A stretch of DNA of 64,000 nucleotides, taken from Lichtheimia corymbifera B2541 (lineage: Eukaryota; Mucoromycota; Mucoromycetes; Mucorales; Lichtheimiaceae). Made by a program: the position numbers and the translations under genes. Below the pieces are notes generated by a model. The model worked only from the letters and a program-made list of their open reading frames with translations, was not told where the DNA came from and did no database searches. Every line of letters begins with the position of its first letter. Positions within the stretch are counted from its first letter, which is position 1. Where the stretch lies: positions 62,001 through 126,000 of the forward strand of contig JNEU01000888.1 of assembly GCA_000697475.1 (NCBI GenBank). Direction: 5' to 3'. This document shows positions 2,290 through 52,297 of this stretch, one piece after another.

Positions 2290-2780
2290 TTTGACGTCTT
2301 TTCGGACGGGCCCTTTTAACGTCCATGGCAGACGGCTAGTTATACGTCATTTAAGCTACGACGGCATTTATACGCAAAGGTGCAAGCGGGTAAGTTTAAC
2401 GTCTACCACGACGCCCCCGTTTAACGTCCACTGTATGTGCAGACGGCTAGTTTACGTCTTTCAGTCTACGACGGCATTTTACGCAAAGAGGTGCAAGCGG
2501 GTATGTTTACGTCTTACCAAGACGGCATTTTGTCGCAAATGTGCAAGCGGTGGCAGTTGACGTCTTACCGAGACGGGCCAGTTTAACGTCCATGGCGGAC
2601 GGCTAGTTATACGTCTTTTAAGCTACGACGGCATTTTGACGCAAATGTGCAAGCGTGGCAGTTTACGTCTTACCGAGACGGGCCCTTTTAACGTCTATCG
2701 CGGACGGCTAGTTATACGTCTTTTAAGCTACGACGGCATTTTGACGCAAATGTGCAAGCGGCAAAGTTTAATGTCATTGC
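2290..2780. repeat. Minisatellite of ~108-bp units built from ACGTC...GACGG modules
   Basis: About 4.5 degenerate tandem units of 107-111 bp. Unit starts fall near 2291, 2399, 2510/2558 and 2665. Each unit is composed of about four sub-modules of ~27 bp that begin with ACGTC, carry GACGG 7-11 bases later, and end with a T-rich spacer. Sub-module landmarks are GGACGGCTAGTTA, CTACGACGGCATTT and ACGCAAATGTGCAAGCG. The array lies in the gap between two convergent genes. ACGTC is the half-site of CRE/ATF-type bZIP factors, but a regulatory role is inference only. It could equally be a subterminal repeat of a mobile element. Confidence 0.8.
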
Positions 2781-8877: not shown

Positions 8878-11400
8878 ATATAATAAAGGTACCTGTTTCT
8901 CCTCAAAACCTTTATACTATAATGGGGTAACCAATATTTGCGATATTGAGCGTATCATTATGTTATCTTTGACTCCAAACCCTAGACATCTTATCTCATT
9001 AGTGGATGCTGTTTGCATCCCTCTGTAAAGGCGATCATTATTCCATTTATGCAGCACCGTGGCGCGTATAACAACCACATGTCGTCAACGCTGAGAGCAT
9101 CTTGGCTTTATTAGTGCTCTCGACACAATCCATTAGTAGGAACAGCTCCATCGCCCTTATTACAGTATAGGATCATGAAGATACCTGCTTCTCGATAATT
9201 TTACAATGAAGCGTGGAGACTTTATGAGAATGAAATTGATCAGCGTGCCTGGGAGCATCTTGTGTGAAAATTTCAAGTTCGAAGTCGGGAATCTCAAGGT
9301 GATGGAGCGTCCACTCTGCTTTATGTTCCCATGCGTTATACATTTGTATCCTCCCATTCAAAAACTTACAATGGAGCATGCGCTTTTTAAATGAATGAAG
9401 TTGATCAGCATGACTCAGCGAACCTTATTACCAAGTTTCATGTTCGAAATGGAGAATCCCAAAATACTGCATACTAATCCACATTTCATGAATTTGGTCG
9501 GGTGCGGGATTTCCGACCAACATAGTAAATCCCATATTACACCCTCCCATTCCCAATTTTCAAATGAACCATGAGGTATTTATGAGAACGAAATTGATCA
9601 GCATGTCCAAGTGCACGTTGTGTGAAAGTTTCATATTTGAGAAAGGGGATTTCGAGTCATGGGGCCGTGCAACCTACATATATTTACGTGCGTTCATCGT
9701 CGGACGCCCGCATCAACGTTCTCATAATGAAGTGTATGGTTTTTATTTGAATGAAGTTGCTCAGAATGTCCAAGCCCACGGTCCTGACCAAGTTTCCCAA
9801 TGGAGATGGGCAACGGCGGGGGTGTGCACTATGTACCCTACTTGCGCTCCGTCCGTCCTATATTTGGACCGTCCGATTCATAAAATATCATAATGAAGCA
9901 TACGGTTTTTAAATGAATGGAGTTGATCAGTATGACTCAGCGAACCTTCATGCCAAGTTTCAAGTTCAAAATAGGGAATCCCAAGATAATGCATACTAAA
10001 CGACATTTCATGAATCCGGGCGGGGTGCTGAATTTCCGTCGATCATAGTAAACCCCACATTACACCCTCCCCTTCCAAATTTTCAAATGAAGCATGGCTC
10101 CTTTATTAAGACAAAGTTGATCAGCATGACCAAGAGCATCTTGTGTGAAAGTTTCAGGTTCGAGAGAGGCAATCTCATGATCATGGATCAATTTACAGTG
10201 TACATGAATATGCAGGACAGTGCCTGACCTAATTAATTTCCAGCTCTTCCACCCCCACTTTATTTTTCTCTTCCACCCATTCTCAACTGTTGCCGCACTC
10301 AACTACAACTACTACCTGCGATTGATTGTCCTCTTTCAACCCATCATGTCAATCCTACAACTGTCTTGATCCGACTGCCTTTGACTGAATGGCAACTCCA
10401 TGGCGTGTGCACCCCATTACAGCACTCGCGTTTCTTGACACTCCACCTTCTTTTGTACAATCCTCAACCACCATCAAACGTAACAGCATTCATTCCAGCA
10501 GTGGCTATAAGCAAGTCTTTACTCTGTCTCAAACAGCATTCATAGCCTTGTCAGTCTACTATAACACACGCTCTTGCACACTTCTCTGTTGCTATCAGCA
10601 AATTCTTTGCTCTATTGTCTCGAGTTACTTGCAGCAACTTGTTTTGAAACATACGGTTACAATGGGTGGGATGCCATATCAGCTATCAAGTACACCGCAA
10701 TACAAGTAATCTTCATCTGGTTGGGTTGCGATGGAAGAAAATGACCCAGCAAGGATTGACCAGCAGCCGGATGGGACAGGAAGCATATCAGCAGCGATCA
10801 CATGGCTCTTCTCAACCAACATATTGGCTATGATGGAGGAATTCAATCAAGTACAGTACTGAGAATCGTGGTGGTCACTTGGCGCGTCGCCCCGCAATAA
10901 TGATCACATGGATACCACTGAGGAGGAGGATGGATTGGATGGGATCGACCAAATGGATGATATCTTGGTGGAAGGTGCTTTACAGTCAGGGACGCTATTG
11001 GAATACTCAGGTCAATGCATGCAGCAGCTATTTTACAATCATGGATGAAGGATGTTTATGACGGCAGCAATCAAGGATACAATGGCACAGTTATCCCTAT
11101 CGACTCGATGTGACACACCCGTAGCTTATCAATTTACAATGCTGTTCCCTTATCATACTTTCTCGATAAACAACATATACACTACCATGTGCTATTCTTC
11201 GACTGTTCCATTAAATTCAACATATTATCTAAACGAGCATCATGCCATCAGTTCATATACTTAAGTTGTGGATCACTGGGTGGTTTCTGGATTGAAAGGA
11301 GGGAGAATATGTAGAAACTTGAAGGTTGGAAAGCTAGATTGGATCATTTACATCATCGTATCGAGATGCTTTTATTCTTTTGTCACAGGTCCTAGTTCAT
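8878..11400 (+). repeat. Left inverted arm (copy L)
   Basis: Contains successive diverged ~120-150 bp units that open with (T)ACAATGAAGCGTGG and continue with ATGAGAACGAAATTGATCAG, CATCTTGTGTGAAAGTTTCA and GTTCGA. These are followed (10200-10700) by a segment starting with pyrimidine-rich TTCCACC motifs, then by a decayed coding-like stretch (10650-11100). It is inverted relative to 15990-18421 and to 12060-13740. The inner boundary is not sharp. Confidence 0.7.
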
Positions 11401-12027
11401 GTATTGATGACGAAAGGCAGGAATGGTTCTCGAATGCTTGCATTGCAAGATATTAATTTCGGGAGTGATGATACCCAACATAGTGCCTGGTTCATTGTAA
11501 CTTGATTCACTCTGCTCAAGAAAGAATAAGCTGTTGTGATACAACTATTCACGAGTACATGAACGTGCCATTCTTACCTATGATAGCTTTCAGCTACGCT
11601 AGTTTATACAACATTATATGTAGGGGCAAATGAAAGGTTCTTATTGGTGGAGGGTGCATGATAGACAATCCCTAAATAGTAAGGTCTGCCTATGATGGTG
11701 TGGTTAACAAGCATAAATGATCAGCGCATCCGAGACTATGAGCGGTAATGGTATTGTTTGCCTCTAGGGTTCGTTCTTATATAAGGCTATACATACAAAA
11801 TGGGTCATGCTGATAGGGCCGTTGTCATAGGTAAGCATTATGATGTATGTACTTGTGCTACAGAGCTCATAATCTTTCTTACGTAGCCGTAATGATTTAA
11901 GCTTACAATGGGTCAAGCTTCCGTAACAAGCAGGGTTGTTGGGTACTATTACTATGGGTTTATTAACAATGAAAATACAAGCGTCTATTTAACATGTATA
12001 CAATCAGTTATTGTCACTACCCATCGT

Positions 12028-12549
12028 CTAATCAGCATATGAACAATGAAGCTTTAATGAATGTAATATGACAGAAGGAACAAGAGCGTCTCGATACAAT
12101 GATGTGGGTATAATCCAATCTCCCATTCCGGCCTTCAAATTTCTATCCTTCCTTTCCTTCCAGATGCCAACCAGTGGATCACAAAGAATCAGCAGGTGTC
12201 GTTGTGTCATTGTATTCTTGGTTGCTGCCGTCATAAGCATATTCACCATGATTGTAAAAGTAGCTGTTGCATGCACTGACTTGAACGTTGCAATATCATC
12301 CATGGTGGTAAATCCTCTCTTGTCAAAGATATAAGCCCTCGTTTCCATGCCATCCAATACAACCAATCCATCATCATCCTCAGCCGTATCCACGTGTTCG
12401 TTACTGCTGACGACGAACCAAGTAGCCAAAGCAGCATTCCAGGATTCCACATTAGTGCACTTGATTGCATCCATCCATTCATCCATAACCATTGCGAGTC
12501 CAATGCGAAAGAGCCTCTGTGATCGCTGCTGATATGCTTCCTTTTCCAT
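12028..12549 (-). pseudogene. Decayed ORF shared by three arm copies, function unknown
   Basis: An open frame of 173 codons containing SWNAALATWFVV, a D/E-rich stretch, then RAYIFDKRGFTTMDDI. The same order occurs in copy R on the minus strand at 16146-16520 (SWNVALVAWRIIS ... KAYIFSERQFTPMDDI), and copy L has frame-shifted remains at 10650-11100. An upstream exon-like part (AISAIKY-A-QA) is conserved in all three but needs frameshifts to join. It is unclear whether this is the element's own former protein or a captured host fragment. No family is recognised. Confidence 0.4.
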
Positions 12550-13250
12550 CCGAGTATTGGTCTCTCTCTTTCTTGGTCATTTTCAGTGCAGCTCAACAAG
12601 GCGAAGAGTGCTTGCATTGCGGGATATTTGATAGCTGATATGGGACCATCCATTAGAAGTCGTATGCATCATTGCAAGTTGCCACACATAAATCAAGCTG
12701 CTTTTATACAATGGCTATCAGCTGTCCACGTGAAGAGGCCGCAAGCAACTTGAGACAATGGATACCTTGCTATTGGCAGCTGCTGTTACGGGATGGTTGT
12801 GGCAGAGGAGCGCGTTGTAGCAGTAGAGTGACAAGATTGTGGATGCTGCTTGAAAGAATAAAGTCATTGCTAATAGTAACTGCTGGAATGAATGCTGTTT
12901 CGTTTGATTGTGGTATTGGAGTGTGCAAGACAGCGTGCAGTATCAAGAAACGCGGGTGTTGTCGTGGGGAGCACACGCCATGGAGTTGCCATTCAGTCAA
13001 AGACAATCGGAACAAGCCACTCGTAGCATTGACATGGTGGGATGAAGCAGGACAATCGTTCGCAGGTTATAGTTGTAGTTAAATGGGGCAACAGTTGAGA
13101 ATGGGAAGAAGTGGGAAATAAAGTATGAGTGGAAGAGGTGGAAATTAAATCTGTCAGGCAGTCAGACATATCCATATACACTGATATCAATGCATGATAC
13201 ATATTGGAATTGCCTGTCTCGAACTTCAAACTTCCACACATTGTGCTCTA

Positions 13251-13454
13251 GGACATGCTGAACAACTTTGTCTTAATAAAGAACCCACACTTCATTTGAA
13301 AATTTCGAAAGGGAGAGCATAATGTGGGGTTTACTATGATGGGCGGAAATTGGGAAAGCGCCGGATTTATGAAAAAGTCAATTAGTATGTAGTTTCTTGG
13401 GATTCCCCATTTCGCACTTGAAACTTGGTCAGAAGGTACTCTCGCACATGCTGA
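13251..13454. repeat. Perfect 204-bp direct repeat, first copy
   Basis: Identical by eye to 13483-13686; the start-to-start distance is 232 bp. The 28-base spacer (13455-13482) mostly duplicates an internal piece around 13356-13379 (GCGCCGGATTTATGAAAAAGTC). This is a recent duplication within copy M. Confidence 0.9.
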
Positions 13455-13482
13455 GAAGCGCCGGATTTATGAAAAAGTCTCT

Positions 13483-13686
13483 GGACATGCTGAACAACTT
13501 TGTCTTAATAAAGAACCCACACTTCATTTGAAAATTTCGAAAGGGAGAGCATAATGTGGGGTTTACTATGATGGGCGGAAATTGGGAAAGCGCCGGATTT
13601 ATGAAAAAGTCAATTAGTATGTAGTTTCTTGGGATTCCCCATTTCGCACTTGAAACTTGGTCAGAAGGTACTCTCGCACATGCTGA
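13483..13686. repeat. Perfect 204-bp direct repeat, second copy
   Basis: Second copy of the 13251-13454 segment. It starts GGACATGCTGAACAACTTTG and ends CTCGCACATGCTGA. No differences were noticed, in contrast to the strong divergence of the other units around it. Confidence 0.9.
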
Positions 13687-14082
13687 TCAACTCCATTCAT
13701 TTAAAAACCGCATGGTTCATTATGAATATTTTGAATGCGGGCCAGCCCAAATGTAGAAAAAAGTAGGGTAGACGCTCCTGCTCGCCGAGGTTGCCCACCT
13801 CGAACCTGAAACTTTCACACAACATCCTTTCGTCCACGCCGAGCAATTTCGTTCTCATAAAGTCCCCAGAGTTCATTATGAAAAGCTTGAATTTAGGAGA
13901 GACGACGAATGGATGGTAACATTAAATAGGGTGTACGGCCGTGCGCGCCGATATTGCTGGTGGGGACGTCGAAACTTGGTCAGGAGGTGCTCTGGGGCAT
14001 GCTGATCAACATCGCTCTCATAAAGTCTCTACACAGCATTATGGAGATTTGGAGAAACAGGTACCTTCATGTTTTACTTATT

Positions 14083-14251
14083 CTGTAAGCGTGATGCCAT
14101 AGGGAAGGTGGTCTTTGTTCATTGTGAAGTAGCTTGACCCTGATAGAGCGGAAGATGCAGACGGACTTCTTTGTGCCACACAGCTCATTTGCATGATACT
14201 TCACAATCAATTAAGATCACTTGCCATATAGCACCACACTTACAGCATATG
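14083..14251. repeat. B-type palindrome (copy in first island)
   Basis: Left arm (TGTAAGCGTGATGCCATA ... GTTCATTGTGAAGTA) and inverted right arm (TACTTCACAAT ... GCACCACACTTACAGCATATG). The centre has GACCCTGATAGAGCGGAAGATG and CTCATTTGCATGATACTTC. It is the same unit that is repeated eight times at 47351-50355. Confidence 0.7.
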
Positions 14252-14267
14252 TAAAACATAAAGATGC

Positions 14268-14580
14268 CCATAACTAAAAATTCTACAATGAAACGTGGGG
14301 TCTTCAATCGAACAAAGTTGCGCGGCGGGGCCAAGCGCACTTTGTGTGCAACTTTCACGATCGTCGTGGCCGATCTCAGATTCACCCAATGTCACCACCA
14401 GCCAAAGTCGATCGTGGGCCAACCTCTTGAATTTTTTTTTCGACGAGGTGGCCGGTGACATTGGGTGAATCTGAGAATGGCCACGACGATCGTGAAAGTG
14501 GCACACAAAGTGCGCTTGGCCCCGCCGCGCAACTTTGTTCGATTGAAGACCCCACGTTTCATTGTAAAGTTTGGAGAAAC
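14268..14580. repeat. A-type palindrome (foldback, ~130-bp arms)
   Basis: The arms run from AATTCTACAATGAAACG inward to ACCCAATGTCACCACCAGCC and back in inverted form from GGTGACATTGGGTGAATCTG to TTTCATTGTAAAGTTT. The loop carries a T-run (GAATTTTTTTTTCGACGAGG). The near-perfect arms would fold into a long hairpin. Further copies lie at 47030-47327, 48212-48504, 48728-48977 and 49867-50150. Confidence 0.8.
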
Positions 14581-14761
14581 AGGCACCTTTATGTTTTACA
14601 TATGCTGTAAGCGTGGTGCTATATGGCAAGTGACCTTTGTTCATTGTCAAGTAGCTAGACCGTAATAGAGCCAAAGATGCAAAGAGGCGTGTTTATGTAC
14701 CTGAGCTAAAAAGTCAGCATTTCAGGGACAATGCATGACAGCTACGCAAATGTCATTTCCA

Positions 14762-15117
14762 ATGCATACATTGGCAGCTAACATGCACTTTTTCTCATTC
14801 CCAGCTTTTGCTCAATCCACTTGATAGGAACGATGCACCTGCTCCAGACATTCGTCTCCATCAATTAACTTTGTTGATCCGAGCTGATTTGACCGAGTTA
14901 CGCTCAAACAAAGAGCATATCAGCCTATACATGCAGCATGCACTATCTGCCTCAACTGATGTCTCTTTGTTTGAGCTAACTCTGCCAAATCAGCTCGGAT
15001 CACGACAATTGAGTCATGGAAATGCTCGACTGGAGCAGGCGCATTATTCCCATCGAGTGGATTGGGTAAAAGCTGAAAGTGGGAAAAAGTGCATGTTAGC
15101 TGCCAATGTATGACCGT
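14762..15117. repeat. C-type palindrome (~160-bp arms)
   Basis: The left arm starts TGCATACATTGGCAGCTAAC and is repeated inverted at the right end (GTTAGCTGCCAATGTATGA, to ~15115). Shared internal landmarks are CACTTTTTC, CCTGCTCCAG and GATCCGAGCTGATTTG. A half copy lies at ~46720-46870 in the second island. Confidence 0.75.
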
Positions 15118-15239
15118 TATTGGATCGTCCATTAACTATCATACATTCACCCTTTCTGTTCACCCCAATCAGATGTGCGACACAAGCACACCCCTCTGCA
15201 TGGTTGGTTATATTAGGCTCAAGCTATAGCATCACGCTT

Positions 15240-15460
15240 AAAGCATATGTAAAATATAAAATTGCCTGTATCTCTAAACTTTACAATGAAGCGTGGGGTC
15301 TTCCATAGAACAAAGTTGTTTGTCGTCGTCGAGTGCACCTTGGGTGCAAGTTTCACGATCAAGCTGAGCAATATTGCACTTTTAAAGAGCCCGCGTTTTA
15401 TTGTAAAGTTTAAAGATACAGGTAACTTTATGTTTTACTTATGCGGGCTGTAGCATGATG
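15240..15460. repeat. Diverged A-type arms
   Basis: TTTACAATGAAGCGTGGGGTC near 15281 pairs with CGCGTTTTATTGTAAAGTTT near 15393-15412; the centre is short. It is a small, decayed relative of the A palindrome. Confidence 0.6.
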
Positions 15461-15720
15461 GAGTTGCTTTCTCCTAGTGGATGGCGTGGGCTGCATTAAC
15501 AGAAATACCGAAAGCTGAGTGAAATGACACGTGGTGGTTACACGCACACGTCCCTGATAGGTTGTTGCACAATGGATGATGATGATGATTCCCTTTAGGA
15601 AGATTCATAAGTAAACCACATCTAACACGTAATGAAGGTGTGTCAGTGTACGTATATGGGAATAGTGGTTTCATGTCATATTAAGATGTAGGAGGGGTGT
15701 GTTCCATAAACCATTAGTTA
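15460..15720 (-). repeat. Likely second copy of the element terminus
   Basis: The segment with GGAGTTGCTTTCTCCTAGTGGAT, GTGGTGGTTACACGCACACG and TGATGATGATTCCCTTT parallels the right terminus at 18140-18260 (GGAGCTGTTTCCTACTAACGGAT, GTGGTTGTTACACGCATCG, TGATGATCGCCTTTAC). This suggests that one nested element ends here. Confidence 0.45.
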
Positions 15721-15989
15721 AAGTTATTGATGAGCACTGACATCCATGCTGAACAAGGCCCGCTCCCCGTGTGTGTATCCGAAGATCCAGTAGCAGCATT
15801 CTTCTCTCATCCTCACTTTCATGTTGTACCTGTCCTTATCCAAGTGATTCACCATTGTCTCTGATAATCCATTACTTCCTTCCTTGTTTGTATTATTGTC
15901 ATCAATTGACCATATGGGTCATGGTTCATAGTTCACGGAGTACGTGTATTTTATAAAAACATCAATGTCCACTAGCTATAATGTTGAAA

Positions 15990-18421
15990 CCATCTAGCTA
16001 TGCACCACCACCGAAGCACCACGACCAGCAGATCCATTCCAGTCCCCTATAGCATGACCATGAAGATGTGTCTGATCCTTCCCTTCTCCTTACCATTGTA
16101 GGATCCTCCATGTCATCCAGCAGGATAAGTAGCTTCAGGTAATATTCAGTGTTGATGCCCTTTGTATCTTCGCGTTTGTGTCGATGAATCTTGTGGATAA
16201 TGATATGCAATCAATCCTATGCCGCCAAGTGCTTCCAACCATAAGCTCATACAACGTCTCTGCATCGTTATCCTAGAAAGATCGAGTATTCCAATGTCAT
16301 CCATGGGCGTAAACTGCCTTTCGCTAAAAATATAAGCCTTGTCAACAATCCCATACAATTCATCATCATTCTCAGACTTACCCACGTAGCATGATCTATT
16401 CTTCCTGCTGATGATGCGCCAAGCAACCAAAGCAACATTCCAGGACCTCACATTACTGCCGTTAAAAAGTTGCTGCCAATGTGTGAAAGCTGTTGCAACA
16501 CCCGTGATTGCATCCACCATCCATAATCATTGCAATCCAATATGCTGGTTGAAAAGAGCCATGAGGTTGTTGCTGGTATGCTTCCTTTTCCATCATGCGC
16601 TTGATCCATCTCTTTCTTGGTCCTTTTTCATCGCAGCTCAGCCAGACGAAGATTGCTTGTATTGCGGCGTACTTGATAGCTGATATGGCACCCCATCCAT
16701 TGGAATCCGTATGTATTAAAGCATGTTGCTATACGTAAATAAAACTGCTTGTATACAATGGCTAGCTGCTGTTCACGTGAAAAAGGCTGCAAGGCATGTT
16801 CCTGCAAGTAGCTGGAGACACTGGCGTAAAGACTTTGCTAATACCAACTGCAGTATCAAGAAAGGCACGTGTTGCAGTAGTCGAGTGACATGGCCGTGTA
16901 CACACCATGAAGTTGGCATTCAGTCAGAGACAATCGGATCAAGAAAGTTGTAGGATTGACATAATGGATTGAAGCAGGACAATCGTTCGCAGGTGGTAGT
17001 CGTACTTGAATGGGCCAACAGTCGAGAATGGGAGGAAGGGAAAATAAGATGAAGGTGGAAGAGCTGGAAATTTAAAGTAGGCTGAGCAGCCAGGCATATC
17101 TATGCACACTGTAAATGATGTCAATGGTCTTGGGATTGCATACATCGAACCTCAAACTTGCACACAAGATGCCCTTGGACATGTTGATCAACTTTGTCTT
17201 AATAAAGAACCCACACTTCATTCAAAGATTTTGAATGGGAGGGTATAATGTGGGGTTTACTATGATGGACGGAAATTGGGTGCCCGCCGGCTTTATGATT
17301 TATAGATTTAGTATGCATTACCTTGGGATTCCCCATGGTGAACATGAAACTTGGTAAGAAGGTTCTCTGAGTCATGCTGATCAACTCTATTCATTTAAAA
17401 ACCGTATGCTTCATTATGATGATTTTATGAATCGGACGGTCCAAATATAGGACGGACGGAGCGCAAGTAGGGTGCATAGTGCACACCCCCGCGGTTGTCG
17501 ATTTTCATCGTGAAACTTGGTCAGACCGTGGGCTTCGATATTCTGATCAACTCCATTCAAATAAAAACCATACTCTTCATTATGAGAACTTTGATGCGGG
17601 CGTCTGACGATGAACGCACGTAAATATATGTAGGTTGGACGGCCCCCCTGACTCGAGATTCCCTTTCTCAAATATGAAACTTTCACACAACGTGCACTTG
17701 GATATGCTGATCAATTTCGTTCTCAAAAAGACCTCATGGTTCATTTGAAAATTGGGAATGGGAGGGTATAATGTGGGATTTACTATGATCGACGGATATC
17801 CCGCACCCGCCCAAATTCATGAAATGGCGATTAGTATGCAGTACGTTGGGATCCGCTATTTCGAACATGAAACTTGGTAAGAAGATTCGCTGAGTCATGC
17901 TGAACAACTTCATTCATTTAAAAAGTGCATGCTCCATTGTGATGGGAGGATACAAATGTATAACGGGTGGGAACATAAAGCAGAGTGGACGCTCCATTAC
18001 CTTGAGGTTGCCGACCTCGAACTTGAAATTTTCACACAAGATGCTCCCAGGCACGCTGATCAATTTCGTTCTCATAAAGTCTCCACGCTTCATTGTGAGA
18101 TCTTCGAAAAGCAGGTATCTTCATGATCCTACACTGTAATAAGGGCGATGGAGCTGTTTCCTACTAACGGATTGTGTCGAGAAGTTAACGATACGTGGTT
18201 GTTACACGCATCGTTTTGTTGCATAAATGTAATGATGATCGCCTTTACAAAGGTGGGCAAACAGCATCTATTGATATACATAAATTAATGAAATAGGATG
18301 GCTAGGGTGTGGAGTCAAAGAGAACACAATGATACGCTCAATATACACAAACAATGAATCGCTTAAATTGCCCCATTCCACATATAAAGGCTTTGAGGAG
18401 AAACAGGTACCTTTATTATAT
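15990..18421 (-). repeat. Right inverted arm (copy R)
   Basis: Read on the minus strand it repeats the order of copy L: terminal segment, ~120-bp units, AT-rich and TTCCACC-containing segment (16930-17110), and then the decayed coding-like stretch. It runs inward from 18421; the inner limit is approximate. Confidence 0.7.
16146..16520 (-). pseudogene. Decayed ORF, copy R homologue of 12028-12549
   Basis: A 124-codon frame with SWNVALVAWRIIS followed by an acidic patch and KAYIFSERQFTPMDDI, matching the order of the copy M frame. An upstream part (minus strand, ~16520-16700) reads AISAIKYAAIQAIFVWLSC in another frame, so the copy is frame-broken. No known domain is recognised. Confidence 0.4.
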
Positions 18422-45166: not shown

Positions 45167-46700
45167 GGTGGTGGTGAATGTTAGTAAACAGACACACCTT
45201 GTTCAAGCTTCTTATATTTGGGTAAATGGGAACCATCCTCCAAAACAAGTAAAAGGGCGTATGAAACGCGAGATCTGGATCTTGGTATACAGTGAGGTCA
45301 CACCACCCCCGTTCAATGGTAATTCGCATGTGTGTCTCAGGGGCAGATAAGGCCACCTTGGATGCGTTTGACTTTTACTTTAACATCTAGAAGATGATGT
45401 TACCCCTATGGTGTCAACTTTTATCGGGATAGTTATCATAATCGATCGGCCAAAGACTATTTTGCACTGTAATTGTTTACTAGACGCTGTCTTATGTCTG
45501 AACCGGAAATACCATGCAACAATATTAATGTATGATACTTCGAAGTATATAGCCCCCATATCCTAGGGACTCGTGATGCGCTGCCTGATCTCCTTTCTTC
45601 TTCAAGCTTCTTCTTGTAGTCGTCTTCATTGCCGCTAGTAGGAACCCATCTTTCATTGCTGCAATAGGATGATCAATGAAAGGAGAGTGGGTATCTTCTC
45701 TTTCTTTTTTTGCCCTTTCAGAATTCTCAAAGTACACCCAGAGGAGGTAGTTACCTTTCGCGCGCATTGCAGGTTTGGGTCTCGCCTCCACACCATGTTC
45801 CTTGTTTTACAAGAAACCCATAACGTTATCGAGAATACAGTCATCCCCCTTTCGCCCCTTTTGTGGCATAAAGTGCCAGAGACTTGGGTTGCTATTTGTG
45901 TAGCAATGGTGATGCCCCTGCTATGTAGATCAAAAAATGCAACGTTTATAATGGATTCAATGGATATACACACACAAGGCTGATAATCCCCTTCACAGCC
46001 TCAATTGACACCGCCCTTCTATCAGCAACTGCTATAAAGAAAGTCCAGTGCAATGGAAACTCCCATCTCTTTAAAAAAGAACGTGCATCCATGTTTTCTT
46101 CTTTGGTATCTTCAAGGATGTGCACATCCCCTTCTCCTTTTTCTGCATCCCCACACCGAAAACAAAGAAAATATATGGTGCAGCTAAGCCTTGTCTAGGC
46201 TGGTGTGGATTACTTTCTACATACCCTGGGTTTGTCTGTGGAATTAATGGTATAGTAGGGGTAAATGGACAAGGGGCAAACTTTCTTTCTTGCCATCTCC
46301 ACAATATCCTTCCAAAAACGAAAGCGTCGTTCATACACACACACCAATTTTTACGTGGATCGTAATAAACAGCTTGCTTTATCATTCTACTTGGATTCGA
46401 TAACTCGTCACGGCACTCTGAAGGTCAATGCCCATGTAAAGAATGGTGCATGATACTAAATTTATCATTGGGTGAGTCGTATTTATGATATGATACAAAA
46501 ACATCCATAACCCGTGTTGTATTGAGGAACAAGCACCTAGGATTGATACATGCCCAAATAAAGTTTCTTGCTGTTGTACATATACCAGCTTGATCTACCG
46601 GTAAGCTTTGATTCCTCCTCGCTAGAGTTCTTCCTTCTTTAGTTATGATCAGCAAAAGATTCTCCTACACTGAATATTTGAGATAGGTAGTGCATACTGA
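45167..46700. other. Intergenic region, no supported gene
   Basis: Only short frames without motifs on either strand. It leads into the second repeat island. Confidence 0.45.
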
Positions 46701-47029
46701 AGTGCCCTTGTTTGGGTGTAGCTCTCAGTGAAATCAGCTCGGGTCAAGGCAATTGAATCATGGAAATAAATGTCTGGAGCAGGAGCATTGTTCTGATGTT
46801 ATACAATTGACAACATTGCCGATTGTAAGGAAACTGCTGTTAGCTCGCAATATATGAACTATATAAGAGTATCATGCATTCATCTCTCCAGTTCTACCCA
46901 ATCAGCTGTGTTACACGAAGAAGTGTTTCTGCATCTTTGGCTCTATTAGCGCATAGCTACTTTATAAAACTCACTTCCATATAGCTTCACGTTTAAAACA
47001 TATATAAAACATAAAGGCAGTCTTATCTC

Positions 47030-47327
47030 AAAATCTTGCAATGAAACGCGAGATCTTCAGTCGAACAAAGTTGCTCGTCATGGTCAAGCGCACCTTGGGT
47101 GCAAGTTTCACGATCGTTGTGGCCATTCTCAGATTCACCCAATGTCACCACCAGCCTCGTCGAAAAAAAATTCGAGGTCGATCAGATCCACTTTGGCTGG
47201 TGGTGACATTGTTGGGTGAAACTGAGATCAGCGAGCTAGATCGGGAAACTTCTACACAAGGTGCGCTCCACCTCGACGAGCAATATTGTTCGATTGAGGA
47301 GCCCACGTTTCATTGTAAAGTTTAGAG
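47030..47327. repeat. A-type palindrome
   Basis: Left arm from CTTGCAATGAAACGCG, centre with TGTCACCACCAGCC and GGCTGGTGGTGACA (14-bp perfect arms), right arm ending CATTGTAAAGTTTAGAG. Confidence 0.8.
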
Positions 47328-47350
47328 ATACAGGCACCTTTATGTTTTTA

Positions 47351-47528
47351 CATATGCTGTAACCATAATGCTCTATAGAGAGTGGTGTGTGCTCATTGTG
47401 AAGTATCATGCAAATGAGCTGTGTTACACAAGCACGCCCCTGCGCACCTTCCGCTCTATCAGGGTCAAGCGACTACACAATGAACAAACAACAGCACTTG
47501 TCATATAGCATCACGCTTTCAACATATG
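47351..47528. repeat. B-type palindrome, copy 1
   Basis: CATATGCTGTAA ... inverted ... TTCAACATATG with the centre CATGCAAATGAGCTGTGTTAC and CGCTCTATCAGGGTCAAGC. Confidence 0.75.
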
Positions 47529-47681
47529 CAAAAACTTAAATGTGCCTGCATCTAGGATCGGCAAGCTTGATCATGAAACATGATTGACAAGGTGCGCTCC
47601 ACCACGACGAGCAATATCGTTCTATAAAAGATCCCTTGTTTCATTGTAAAGTTTAGAGATAAATGCACTTTCTCGTGTTCA

Positions 47682-47858
47682 CATATGCCGAAAAGCATGG
47701 CGCTATATGACAAGTGGTGTTTGTTCATTGTCAAGTAGGTAGACCGTGATAGAGCGGAAGATACGCGGGAGAGTGCATGTGTAACACAGCTCATTTGCAT
47801 AATACTTCTCAATGAACAAACACCACTTGTCATATAGCGCCATGCTTTCCAGCATATG
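47682..47858. repeat. B-type palindrome, copy 2
   Basis: Starts 331 bp after copy 1; arms CATATGCCGAAAAGCATGG and CCATGCTTTCCAGCATATG. The centre has opposite orientation to copy 1 (TGATAGAGCGGAAG). Confidence 0.75.
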
Positions 47859-48011
47859 TAAAAACGAGAAAGTGCATTTATCTCTAAACTTTACAATGAA
47901 ACATGGGATCTTCCATAGAACGATATTGCTCGTCGTGGTAGAGCGCACCTTGTCAATCAAGTTTCACCATCACGCTTGCCGATCCTAGATGCAGGCACAT
48001 TTACGTTTTTG

Positions 48012-48186
48012 CATATGTTTAAAATGTGATGCTATATGACAAGTGGTGCTTGTTCATTGCGTAGTATCATGCAAATGAGCTGTGTTGCACAAGCACGCCC
48101 CTGCGCATCTTCTGCTCTATCAGGGTCAAGCTACTTGACAATGAACAAACACCACTTGTCATATAGCATCATGCTTTCAGTATATG
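48012..48186. repeat. B-type palindrome, copy 3
   Basis: Starts 330 bp after copy 2. The centre reads TCATGCAAATGAGCTGTG, as in copy 1. Confidence 0.75.
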
Positions 48187-48211
48187 TAAAAACATAAATG
48201 TGCCGGTATCT

Positions 48212-48504
48212 CTAAACTTTACAATGAAACATGGGCTCTTCAATCGAAGAAAGTTGCTCGTCGGGGTGTAGCGCACCTTGGGTGCAAGTTTCACGATCAA
48301 CCTCGCCAATCTCAAATTTACCCAATGTCACCACCAGCCTCGTCGAAAAAAATTCAAGAGGTCGACCCGATCAACTTTGGCTGGTGGTGACATTCTGTGA
48401 ATCTGAGATCGGCCACGACGATCGTGAAGCTTCCACCCAAGGTGCGCTCCGCCTCGACGAGCAACTTTGTTCGATTGAAGACCCCACATTCATTGTAAAG
48501 TTTA
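48212..48504. repeat. A-type palindrome
   Basis: From AAACTTTACAATGAAACATGGG to CACATTCATTGTAAAGTTT; the centre has CACCACCAGCC / GGCTGGTGGTG around AAATTCAAGAGGTCGACC. Confidence 0.8.
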
Positions 48505-48530
48505 GAGATACAGGCACCTTTATGTTTTCA

Positions 48531-48700
48531 CATATGCTGTAAGCGTGATGCCATATGACAAGTGGTGTTTGTTCATTCTGAAGCAGCTTGACTCTGATAA
48601 AGCGGAAGATGCAGACGGACTTTGTGCAACACAGCTCATTTGCATGATGCTTCACTGAACAAACACCACTCCCCATATAGCATCACGCTTACAGCATATG
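48531..48700. repeat. B-type palindrome, copy 4
   Basis: CATATGCTGTAAGCGTGATG ... CATCACGCTTACAGCATATG: the outer 20 bp arms match perfectly. Confidence 0.8.
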
Positions 48701-48727
48701 AAAAAACATAAAGTGCCTGTACCTCTA

Positions 48728-48977
48728 AACTTTACAATGAAACGTGGGCTCTTAAATCGAAGAAAGTTGCTCGTCGAGGTGGAGCGCACCTTGGGTGGAA
48801 GTTTCACGATCGTCGTGGCCGATCTCAGATTCAACGAATGTCACCACCAGCCAAAGTTGATCGGGTCGACCTCGAATTTTTTTTTCGACGAGGCTGGTGG
48901 TGACATTGGGTAAGGTGCGCTACACCCCGACGAGCAACTTTCTTCGATTGAAGAGCCCATGTTTCATTGTAAAGTTT
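48728..48977. repeat. A-type palindrome
   Basis: Left arm AAACTTTACAATGAAACGTGG, centre CACCACCAGCC ... GGCTGGTGGTG around GAATTTTTTTTTCGACGAG, right arm CATGTTTCATTGTAAAGTTT. The right arm lacks part of the central block. Confidence 0.8.
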
Positions 48978-49004
48978 AGAGATACCGGCACATTTATGTT
49001 CTTA

Positions 49005-49179
49005 CATATGCTGAAAGCATGATGCTATATGACAAGTGGTCTTTGTTCATTGTCAAGTAGCTTGACCCTGATAGAGCGAAAGATGCGCAGGGTCGTGCTT
49101 ATATAACACAGCTCATTTGCATGATACTTCACAATGAACAAACACCACTTGCCATATAGCATCACGCTTTCAGCATATG
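49005..49179. repeat. B-type palindrome, copy 5
   Basis: CATATGCTGAAAGCATGATG ... CATCACGCTTTCAGCATATG with the B centre TGATAGAGCGAAAGATG. Confidence 0.75.
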
Positions 49180-49332
49180 TAAAAACGTAAAAGTGCCTGT
49201 ACATAGGATCGGCAAGCGTGATGGTGAAACTTGATTGACAAGGTGCGCTCCACCACAACGAGCAATATTGTTCGATGAAAGAGCTCATGATTCATGGTAA
49301 AGTTTAGAGATAAATGCACTTTCTCGTTTCTA

Positions 49333-49508
49333 CATATGCTGAAAGCGTGATGCTATATGATAAGTGATGTTTGTTCATTGTGAAGGATTATGCAAATGAG
49401 CTGTGTTGCACAAGCTCGCCCCTGTGCATCTTCCGCTCTATCAGGATCTACCTACTTGACAATGAAGAAGCACTACTTGTCATATAGCATCATGCTTTTC
49501 AGCATATG
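49333..49508. repeat. B-type palindrome, copy 6
   Basis: Starts 328 bp after copy 5; arms CATATGCTGAAAGCGTGATG and CATCATGCTTTTCAGCATATG (one-base bulge). Confidence 0.75.
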
Positions 49509-49661
49509 TAAAAACGAGAAAGTGCATTTATCTCTAAACTTTACGATGAAACATGGGCTCTTTCATAGAACAATATTGCTCGACATGGTCGAGCACACCT
49601 TGTCAATCAAGTTTCACGATCAAGCTTGCCAATCCTACGTACAGGCACTTTTACGTTTTTA

Positions 49662-49836
49662 CATATGCTGAAAGCGTGATGCTATATGACAAGTGACGTT
49701 TGTTCATTGTGAAGTATCATGCAAATGAGCTGTGTTATATAAGCACGACCCTGCGCATCTTTCGCTCTATCACGATCTACCTACTTGACAATGAACAAAG
49801 GTCACTTTTCATATAGCATCATGGCTACAGCATATG
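49662..49836. repeat. B-type palindrome, copy 7
   Basis: Starts 329 bp after copy 6; the same arms and centre with small differences. Confidence 0.75.
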
Positions 49837-49866
49837 TAAAACGTAAAGATGCCCATAACTAAAAAT

Positions 49867-50150
49867 TCTACAATGAAACGTGGGGTCTTCAATCGAACAA
49901 AGTTGCGCGGCAGGGTGAAGCGCACCCTGTGTGCAAGTTTCACGATCCAGCTCGCCGATCTCAGATTCACCCAATGTCACCACCAGCCTCGTTGAAAAAA
50001 AATTCAAGAGGTCGACCCACGATCCACTTTGGCTGGTGGTGACACAGCGAAATCTAGGATCGTCGAGCCTGATCGTGAAACTTGCACCCAAGGTGCGCTT
50101 GACCCCGACGAGCAATATTGTTCGATTGAAGTCCCCATATTTCATGTAAG
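49867..50150. repeat. A-type palindrome
   Basis: Left arm TTCTACAATGAAACGTGG as in the first island copy (14275); centre TGTCACCACCAGCC / GGCTGGTGGTGACA around AAATTCAAGAGGTCGACC; right arm decayed. Confidence 0.75.
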
Positions 50151-50181
50151 ATTTTTAGTTATGGGCATCTTTGTGCTTTTA

Positions 50182-50355
50182 CTATGCTGTACGCGTAACG
50201 CTATATGTAAAGTGATCTCGGTTCATTGTCAAGCAGCTGGAGCCTAATAGAGCCAAAGATGCAGAGGGACGTGTTTGTGTAATACAGCTCATTTGCATGA
50301 TACTTCACAATGAACAAACACCATTCTCCATATAGCATCACGCTTACAGCATATG
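50182..50355. repeat. B-type palindrome, copy 8
   Basis: CTATGCTGTACGCGTAACG ... CATCACGCTTACAGCATATG. The left arm is more diverged than the right. Confidence 0.7.
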
Positions 50356-50369
50356 TAAAAACATAAAGG

Positions 50370-51350
50370 TTCCTGTTTCTACAAGTTGCCATGATGAAGT
50401 GTGGGGTCTTTATGAGAACAAAGTTGATCAGGATGGCCGAGAGGACCTCTGACCAAGTTTCATATTCGAGATCACCAATATCGGCGGGCGCGGCCCGTAC
50501 ATCTTAACTATGTTTCCCTCCGTACATCCAGGCGCCGCCAACCAAAACTTCATAATGAAGTGTGGCATCTCTATGAGAACGAAATTGCTCGCCGTGATCG
50601 GAAGTACCTTGCATGAAAGTTTCAGGTTCGAGGTAGCCAATCTCAGGCTCAGGGAGCGTCCAACCTACTTTTGCCCTACATTTGGGCCGCCCCGCATTCA
50701 AAACATTTATAATGAAGCCTGCGTTTTTTAAATGAATGTGGTTGATCAGCATGCCCCAGCGAACCTTCTGACCAAATTTCAGGTTCGAAATGGGCAATCC
50801 CAAGTTAATACATACTACTTCGATAAATCATAAATCCGGCGCGTACCCGATTTCCGACCATCCATAGTAAACCCCACATTATACCCTCCCATTCAAAATT
50901 TTCAAATGAAGCATGGGTTCTTTATTAATACAAAGTTGATCAGCATGACCAAGAGCATCTTGTGTGAAAGTTTCAGGTTTGAGAGAGGCAATCACGGTCA
51001 TGGATTAATTTATAGTGTGCATGAATCTGTCGGACTCAGTGTCTGACCTATTTAGTTTCCACTTCTTCCACTATCAACTACAACTACAACCTGCGAACAA
51101 TTGTCCTGCTTCAACCCATCATGTCAATCCTACAACTGCCTTGATCCTATTTGTCTTTGACTGAATGGCAAGTTCATGGCGTGTGCACCCCACGACAACA
51201 CCCGCAATTCTTGGCACTCCACTTTCTCTTGCACACTCCTCTGCCACGACCAACGTAACAGCAGCTGCCATCAGCAATGTCTTCAACTCCATTGTCTCAA
51301 GTTACTTGCAGCAGCTTGTCTTTGGGCCTTTTCACTTGGACAGCAGATAG
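50370..51350 (+). repeat. Arm fragment (family of copies L/M/R)
   Basis: Same orientation and order as 9560-10640 in the first island: ~120-bp units followed by the TTCCACTTCTTCCAC and CTACAACTACAACCTGCGA segment and CTTGACTGAATGGCAA-like sequence. It ends near CAGCAGCTTGTC (51310). Confidence 0.65.
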
Positions 51351-52297
51351 TCATTATATAGAAACAGCTTTATTTTGCGTGTAGCAACTTGCTTGAATAC
51401 ATACGATTTGCCTAAGGAAATGGATATGGATATTGCTTTGGTATATGGGATGGGAGGAATTGGATATATCCAACGCGTGGAAAGAGGGCCTTGTTTTTAT
51501 GCATTCATTGTCAACTTGCTTGGGCATTATGCGTGCTACTATCATCCTAAACCATGCATGCATGCATGTAATTACCGTCTTTTACATAAGCTATTCCATG
51601 GAAGCCACTGTCATCACCCTTCATGCAACCTGTGAACCAAGTACAATCATCATCAACCTACTGCATACTTTGACATGGTGTGGTTATCATGCGATACCAC
51701 GAATCAAGAGCCACTTCACATTCATCTTGGCACAGTGCACCCGGAAGGATAGAAACCTTCCAAATCGATGCATTTCCCTTATTGGAACATTTCATTATAC
51801 ATCTCTCAATCTACCTCTTGTGAATAGTTTGGATCAAAAGGCTACACTGGCAAATAAAGCAATACGTTGCTCACCAACCAGTTCTCGGTTTCTACTGTGT
51901 AAGGCCTTCCTTTTTCCTGAACAGGACCTCATTGTATGACAGTACGATTCATGGTATGGGAAATGTAGGGCTGTAGAAGGATATCCACATATGAATGCTA
52001 TGATAAAGGGCAAAGAGAGGAAAAGAGGAGTCTTCCTGATGGATTCATTGTGTCTTGAACAAAGGCTGTATTCGGTATATAATGTATCCCCTTTTTCGTT
52101 CTGTGATTTCGATCACTTTTCATGTTGAAGATTAATATCGTACGTTGTGTCTTCATCGGTTTTATTTGTCATAATACCATATTGCTATTAGTAAGCCACT
52201 TGTTCACGGTCATTAAAGAGATGTGACGCCATCTTTAGGCAGGACTCAGCAGTTACAATAGTCTATATAGAAGCGAAACGTAGCAACAGCGAACAAC
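51351..52297. other. Region between repeat island and secreted-protein gene, no supported gene
   Basis: A 168-codon frame at 51433-51939 starts without ATG and has no motif; it is probably chance. The AT-rich 3' part is downstream of the minus-strand gene. Confidence 0.4.

What the first reader, a model, noticed from the sequence alone, without database searches (positions are those of the whole stretch)
47030..50355. Ordered array of two alternating palindromes (A-B-B-B-A-B-A-B-B-B-A-B)
Eight B palindromes start at 47351, 47682, 48012, 48531, 49005, 49333, 49662 and 50182. Spacings are about 330 or 474-520 bp depending on whether a full A palindrome lies between. The pattern B-B-B-A-B recurs, so this is a higher-order palindrome repeat rather than scattered insertions. 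Such DNA can form cruciforms and may have replication, chromatin or transposition consequences.
Basis: seen in the sequence. Interest (0 to 1): 0.75.

Follow-up and report, generated by a model that had tools for sequence, protein, structure and literature searches.

The report
Palindromic core of foldback transposon family
The ordered palindromes are the mirror-image middle part of a decayed copy of a repeated jumping-gene family, related to Mutator transposons, that is scattered through the genome of the mould Lichtheimia corymbifera and does not appear to encode its own transposase.

Summary
In detail: 46,900-50,355 contains 8 full B and 4 A palindromes in the stated order, plus a half-B that was missed at the left end. 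It is not a local satellite. The organism is Lichtheimia corymbifera (control protein 100% identical). The block is two overlapping copies, sharing one B, of a mirror-symmetric core, B-A-B-b-B*-b'-B-A-B; its inner b-B-b' part is in 20 of 20 fetched loci (chosen because they match). B loops occur 1,093 times and A arms 649 + 647 times genome-wide, control 0. Cores adjoin ~160-bp tandem repeats (D) and blocks G1, G2, F. An outer module H ends sharply at GGGAATTACTACGC... in 13 aligned copies. Seven elements have that terminus at both ends: 5 of 7 have 8-9-bp target duplications with 0-2 mismatches, none of 42 cross-pairings does; one (C260) encloses an A/B core. The same terminus lies beside MULE transposase domains in two contigs. 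Best reading: a foldback-type, non-autonomous Mutator-like family; the window array is a terminus-less relic. Tests for coding and for RNA-hairpin selection were negative. New variant of a known kind.

The parts
46696..46864 (-). E module (part of a ~470-bp palindrome that elsewhere joins two half-B copies); left limit of homology
47024..47330 (.). Ca'-A-Ca palindrome 1 (A at 47133-47222)
47351..47546 (+). B1
47540..47665 (+). Cb spacer module
47665..47858 (-). B2, centre of core copy 1
47875..48000 (-). Cb spacer module, inverted
48010..48206 (+). B3
48207..48510 (.). Ca'-A-Ca palindrome 2 (A at 48316-48394)
48513..48700 (-). B4, shared by the two core copies
48720..48984 (.). Ca'-A-Ca palindrome 3 (A at 48832-48911); region folds as a long hairpin
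48985..49179 (-). B5
49193..49316 (+). Cb spacer module
49333..49525 (+). B6, centre of core copy 2
49525..49648 (-). Cb spacer module, inverted
49662..49853 (+). B7
49856..50161 (.). Ca'-A-Ca palindrome 4 (A at 49965-50044)
50164..50355 (-). B8
50384..50998 (+). D: four tandem repeats (starts 50384, 50546, 50706, 50900), homologous to the C modules
51075..51410 (+). G1, dispersed block that follows D
51411..52070 (+). G2*, variant downstream block; matches in L016, L019, L025 and L026 reach 51.7-52.1 kb
9026..15713 (.). second cluster of the same family: H, D, G1, G2 facing F', G2', G1', D', partial core, E, half-core, H'
16289..18098 (-). third copy: G2, G1, D (H-like stretch beyond, about 18109-18268, 74%)

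Best explanation
The array is the palindromic middle domain of a degraded copy of a foldback-type, non-autonomous transposon family. Members that keep both ends start and finish with an inverted terminal module H (5'-GGGAATTACTACGCGCGCACC...). Inside lie some or all of tandem D repeats, G1, G2, F and the A/B core, in one or both orientations. The terminal ~230 bp are homologous to the ends of Mutator-like (MULE) elements in the same genome, so the likely mechanism is that MULE transposase recognised the shared ends and inserted copies, making 8-9-bp target duplications. Recombination between the many interchangeable inverted arms (especially B) then probably flipped loops, exchanged modules, chained units and truncated copies. 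Shown: modules, order, copy number, terminus, target duplications in most two-ended copies, transposase domain near the same terminus. Inferred: mobilisation in trans, and recombination as the cause of the chains. The window copy has lost its termini and should be immobile.
For: Inner b-B-b' part in 20 of 20 fetched loci (chosen as matches). 1,093 B loops and 649 + 647 A arms, reversed-pattern control 0. In the H search 10 of 45 matches start within query positions 102-115 and only the query itself starts earlier (40 of 267 candidates scored); 13 aligned copies share the terminus while flanks do not align. Terminus pattern 35 forward and 33 reverse, control 0. Seven two-ended elements: best target-duplication mismatches (8 or 9 bp) 0 (C136), 1 (C260), 1 (C397), 2 (C222), 2 (C200), 3 (C157), 6 (C90); 42 cross-pairings of different elements: minimum 3 (one), the rest 4-8. 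C260 (4,299 bp) encloses H, F, G2, G1, D and three B and three A; C397 (2,427 bp) G2, G1, D; C90 D, G1, G2, F, Ca; C136 and C222 only H-H'. MULE domain at C388:1057-1374 (78.7 bits, cut-off 27.6) and C157:3345-3497 (38 bits), each about 2.4-2.5 kb from a terminus of the GCCC variant (also 82). End homology in 6 of 6 comparisons: 114-180 identical of 168-230 aligned bases, scores 22-60 against a shuffled maximum of 17-19. L021, away from contig ends, is one 3.9-kb palindrome, 83%.
Against: Only 1 of 7 two-ended elements has a perfect duplication; C90 has none and transposase-bearing C157 only 5 of 8. The interior of C200 was not read and C157 was not mapped for modules. The window copy has no H at 46.7-52.1 kb and no terminus within 6 mismatches, so its membership rests on shared modules. 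Only one two-ended element (C260) shows an A/B core inside the termini. G2 tails and other edges end at many different places, so many copies are not clean insertions. The two most complete arm-core-arm copies (C148, C226) are mirrored up to contig ends at 98-99%, which could be an assembly fold-back artefact. For C388 only one terminus is seen. Transposition itself was not observed.
Confidence: 0.83

Rival explanations
1. Satellite-like DNA that spreads by unequal exchange and segmental duplication; the transposon ends merely happen to be nearby.
For: Copies are joined in direct and inverted chains; ends of homology differ between copies; cores are shuffled relative to G2 subfamilies (core 0.840 identity where G2 is 0.949).
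Against: Dispersal over many contigs, a sharp common terminus with flanks that do not align, and target duplications around units that contain the modules.
Confidence: 0.1
2. A lineage-specific gene family in which the core and D repeats are an elaborate, partly bidirectional promoter for a G1-G2 gene.
For: Predicted proteins of L. corymbifera match a G2 reading frame (33 hits, 31 so named); G1/G2 are ordered and point away from the core in many loci; TATA-like and AATAAA-like strings were noticed by eye in the alignment (motifs from recall, not scanned).
Against: 28 pairwise comparisons of 8 copies: mean dN 0.050, dS 0.067, variable sites flat over codon positions 145/173/167 (single pairs range from 0.15 to 2.7, and some pairs with the short L017 copy are below 0.35); stops in many copies; no Pfam family above cut-off; a frame through the palindromes was annotated as proteins in the same way (31 hits).
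Confidence: 0.05
3. The palindromes are kept by selection as long hairpin RNA that feeds the fungus's RNA interference pathway.
For: Inner core folds with z -52; dicer-like and argonaute proteins are reported in this species (PMC4133162, section 6).
Against: Arm mismatches show no strand-specific wobble excess: G-T 123, A-C 141 over 17 cores; the two arms of a core resemble each other (mean 0.900) little more than arms of other loci do (mean 0.870), and in only 4 of 17 cores more than any arm elsewhere.
Confidence: 0.05

Closest known systems
Tetris, foldback element of Drosophila virilis (PMC4079207; abstract and sections 10 and 17 read)
   Same: Long inverted arms with internal ~220-bp tandem repeats, a non-coding middle domain, rearranged forms, 8-10-bp target duplications, no transposase found, suggested Mutator affinity.
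   Different: Here the middle is itself an ordered palindrome of palindromes, copies form chains, the host is a Mucorales fungus, and a transposase-bearing element with homologous ends is present in the same genome.
Galileo, P-superfamily transposon of Drosophila (PMC3573991; passages read)
   Same: Long, partly internally repetitive inverted repeats; exchange and chimerism between copies.
   Different: 7-bp target duplications and P-type transposase; here 8-9 bp and MULE.
Tm1, Mutator/Foldback family of root-knot nematodes (PMC3169594; abstract read)
   Same: Composite inverted repeats of variable length, 9-bp duplications, MITE-like and transposase-encoding members within one family.
   Different: Different host; no ordered palindromic core described in the abstract.
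Mutator-like elements in general (PMC5225508; passages read)
   Same: Inverted repeats over 100 bp and 8-10-bp target duplications; non-autonomous members share the ends of the autonomous one.
   Different: The modular palindromic interior.

Membership tests
Mutator-like element (MULE), non-autonomous | 8-10-bp target-site duplication | tested here: met
   mismatches at best of 8 or 9 bp in 7 two-ended elements: 0, 1, 1, 2, 2, 3, 6; 42 cross-pairings: minimum 3. Met by the family, not by every copy
Mutator-like element (MULE), non-autonomous | inverted terminal repeats over 100 bp | tested here: met
   H modules face inward at both ends of C260 (114 and 454 bp matched), C136, C222 and C397; C90 has only 76 bp on the right
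Mutator-like element (MULE), non-autonomous | ends shared with a transposase-encoding member | tested here: met
   C388 and C157 carry PF10551 about 2.4-2.5 kb from a terminus; end homology scores 22-60 against a shuffled maximum of 17-19 in 6 of 6 compared ends. Both ends are seen only in C157
Mutator-like element (MULE), non-autonomous | mobilised by that transposase | not testable with these tools
   needs an experiment or empty sites in other isolates
Foldback element | long inverted arms with internal tandem repeats around a non-coding middle | tested here: met
   D repeats within arms; arm-core-arm in L021, a 3.9-kb palindrome at 83%, internal to its contig
Foldback element | the window copy itself has termini | tested here: not met
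   no H at 46.7-52.1 kb and no terminus within 6 mismatches anywhere in the window; it is a relic placed by shared modules only
Merlin (8-9-bp duplications, GG ends; PMC8101967, passages, which also counts 14 Merlin sequences in L. corymbifera) | Merlin/IS1595 transposase in the element with these ends | tested here: not met
   Pfam scan of seven pieces of the C157 element gave MULE in two and no IS1595 domain
Satellite DNA | long tandem arrays of one monomer | tested here: not met
   Tandem Repeats Finder (periods up to 500) lists no array at 46.9-50.4 kb; the units are ordered modules in short dispersed blocks
Protein-coding gene family | purifying selection on the frame | tested here: not met
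   8 copies, 28 pairs

The most novel reading that the evidence does not exclude
The core grows by itself: palindrome-driven inverted duplication and loop flipping (hairpin or fold-back replication, arm-to-arm conversion) build ordered palindromes of palindromes independently of the transposase, so that a MULE-derived element became a self-elaborating structure, possibly also a source of long hairpin RNA. Hints: the central B occurs in both orientations (13:6 in 19 cores) while its two neighbours mirror each other in 17 of 19 (counted from the table); two of 17 cores have perfectly identical 320-338-nt arms although arms of different loci differ by about 13% (assembly collapse not excluded); half-B copies join E or F modules at the B centre.
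Probability: 0.2. Interest if true: 0.6.

Novelty: new variant of a known kind. Interest (0 to 1): 0.42.

Why it matters
The 2014 genome paper reported only 4.7% repeats, found by searching Repbase with Censor (PMC4133162; section 6 read, section 21 seen as a passage). Here A and B modules alone come to roughly 0.4 Mb (about 1.2%) by count times length (inference), and pieces of the family sit in protein databases as predicted L. corymbifera proteins. Recognising the family would clean up gene models. The shared terminus gives a direct handle on which elements still move, and the many dispersed inverted copies are natural substrates for testing palindrome-driven rearrangement in a little-studied fungal order.

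Tried and rejected
Centromere: rejected, because copies are dispersed over many contigs. Subtelomere: considered when the GCCC terminus variant appeared near contig ends; rejected because flanks differ, no telomere repeat was seen by eye in the eight pieces printed, and in C388 and C157 the sequence runs on into the element; contigs probably break inside near-identical copies. A base-substitution (RIP-like) signature in the core: not seen (ts/tv 0.86 in core, 1.31 in G2). Protein-coding G2: rejected. RNA-hairpin selection: no signal. LINE link: a zf-RVT remnant beside L012 (27.4 bits, cut-off 27.5) lies outside the stretch that L012 shares with two or more of the other loci. An OTU protease and a SWIM finger in the transposase-bearing element were suspected from recall; Pfam pieces did not show either (one piece matched a ZSWIM RNaseH-like model below its cut-off) and a PDB sequence search of one piece did not support OTU. 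Weaknesses kept: DNA searches score only 40 candidates, so their counts are lower bounds (pattern counts are whole for the pattern, but miss diverged copies); structure loci were chosen as best matches to the window array; G2*, E and F boundaries are set by alignment only; C200's interior was not read. Paper searches: Lichtheimia with transposable elements and palindrome returned 0; the listings (titles and abstract starts) named no such family; only open-licence papers are covered. Whether other Lichtheimia species carry the family was not tested.

Full report
What was checked. The interval was read and scanned for repeats. Against 0 in 20 shuffles and 0-2 in seven other stretches of the window, the array holds 2,252 exact inverted 15-mer pairs. 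The spacers between B copies are also conserved modules: Ca (flanking A) and Cb (flanking the central B), both resembling the D repeats downstream (family D5).

Where it comes from. The window lies in a 35-Mb assembly of 432 contigs. A 309-aa exon at 54.6-55.5 kb is 100% identical to the BFR1-related protein of Lichtheimia corymbifera FSU 9682, a species whose published genome is 33.6 Mb with 43.4% GC (PMC4133162, section 6).

Architecture. Twenty matching loci (L009-L028, taken from the top of the list) and the window copies were annotated with the modules. All 20 contain Cb-B-Cb'. The common core is B-[A]-B-Cb-B*-Cb'-B-[A]-B, symmetric about B*; several loci have shortened or lengthened versions. 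The window block is two of these sharing the B at 48513. In 19 cores with a single Cb-B-Cb' the two flanking B copies mirror each other in 17, whereas B* occurs both ways (13:6 in raw orientation; 4:5 in the nine cores with a D arm seen on one side only; counted by hand from the table, partly re-added). Cores run into D repeats, G1 and G2 on one or both sides; units also meet tail to tail or follow in tandem. L021 is a single 3.9-kb palindrome, 83% self-complementary, inside a 314-kb contig.

Abundance. With up to 3 mismatches the B loop is found 530 + 563 times and, with up to 1, an A arm 649 + 647 times; the reversed-pattern control is 0 in both.

Is it a gene? G2 contains a frame annotated as predicted proteins (33 hits; 31 named L. 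corymbifera, the other two without a name, one of them encoded by the window). Eight copies give mean dN 0.050 and dS 0.067 over 28 pairs, with variable sites evenly spread over codon positions (145/173/167), no Pfam family above cut-off, and stops in many copies. A frame through the palindromes is likewise annotated as proteins (31 hits, 30 named L. corymbifera). These look like gene models drawn over repeats.

Is the hairpin maintained? The inner core folds as one long hairpin. In 17 cores the arms are on average 0.900 identical (range 0.82-1.00; two are perfect), against 0.870 between loci; mismatches are G-T 123 and A-C 141. That gives no sign of selection on an RNA strand; occasional arm-to-arm conversion would fit the two perfect cases, though assembly collapse cannot be excluded. 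Within a subfamily whose G2 is 0.949 identical, cores are only 0.840 identical: cores are exchanged or change faster.

The ends. Some units begin with a further module H. Searching the genome with H gave 45 matches (40 of 267 candidates scored); ten start within query positions 102-115 and, the query apart, none earlier. Fetching small flanks showed 13 copies sharing 5'-GGGAATTACTACGCGCGCACCAAAATTCGACCTCGCGC... with outside sequence that does not align. The 21-base terminus occurs 35 times forward and 33 reverse, control 0. Six pairs face each other within 5 kb and a seventh (C200) at 6.7 kb. Best mismatches between their 8- or 9-bp flanks: C136 0 (TTCTCAAAT), C260 1, C397 1, C222 2, C200 2, C157 3, C90 6; left flanks paired with right flanks of other elements give one 3 and otherwise 4-8 in 42. 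C260 encloses H, F, G2, G1, D and three B and three A; C397 and C90 enclose G/D modules; C136 and C222 are H-H' only, and C136 is inserted in a Ca/A stretch of another copy. C148 and C226 show terminus-H-D-G1-G2-F-core-F'-G2'-G1'-D', but the mirrored half runs to the contig end at 98-99% identity, so I do not lean on it.

The transposase. A terminus variant (GCCC) occurs 28 times; 15 of these lie within about 0.6 kb of a contig end as far as contig lengths were seen. In C388 and C157 it lies about 2.4-2.5 kb from a MULE domain (78.7 and 38 bits against a cut-off of 27.6; for pieces of C157). Its first ~230 bp align to H ends in 6 of 6 comparisons, scores 22-60 against a shuffled maximum of 17-19. 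The MULE criteria of inverted repeats over 100 bp and 8-10-bp duplications are as given in PMC5225508 (passages). Merlin elements also have GG ends and 8-9-bp duplications (PMC8101967, passages), but no IS1595-type domain was found here.

Conclusion. The array is a relic of a foldback-type, non-autonomous MULE family. Mobilisation in trans and palindrome-mediated shuffling are inferences. The nearest described kinds are Tetris, Tm1 and Galileo; the ordered palindrome-of-palindromes middle is the distinguishing feature. MULEs as such are known from Mucorales (PMC7928374, passage).

Noticed in passing
window 9026-18098: Two more copies of the same family, including a convergent G2-G2' junction that recurs at 84-91% identity in three other loci (C384 start, C384 133-148 kb, C152 302-317 kb).
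   Followed up: yes
window 13246-13686: A 232-bp direct duplication, 99% identical, inside the D repeats of the second cluster: a very recent local duplication.
   Followed up: no
window 2333-2761: A separate tandem repeat of 54- and 105-bp units.
   Followed up: no
G000 C14, C19, C23, C60, C95 and six other contig starts, positions about 350-550: Identical MULE terminus variants close to contig ends; the assembly appears to break inside a young element family.
   Followed up: partly
L012:2273-2926: Remnant resembling the C-terminal zinc-binding part of a LINE reverse transcriptase (PF13966, 27.4 bits, cut-off 27.5) next to an array.
   Followed up: no
protein database, P0001-P0064: 61 of 64 listed proteins are predicted L. 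corymbifera proteins that are frames through this repeat family; they may inflate counts of species-specific and expanded genes.
   Followed up: partly
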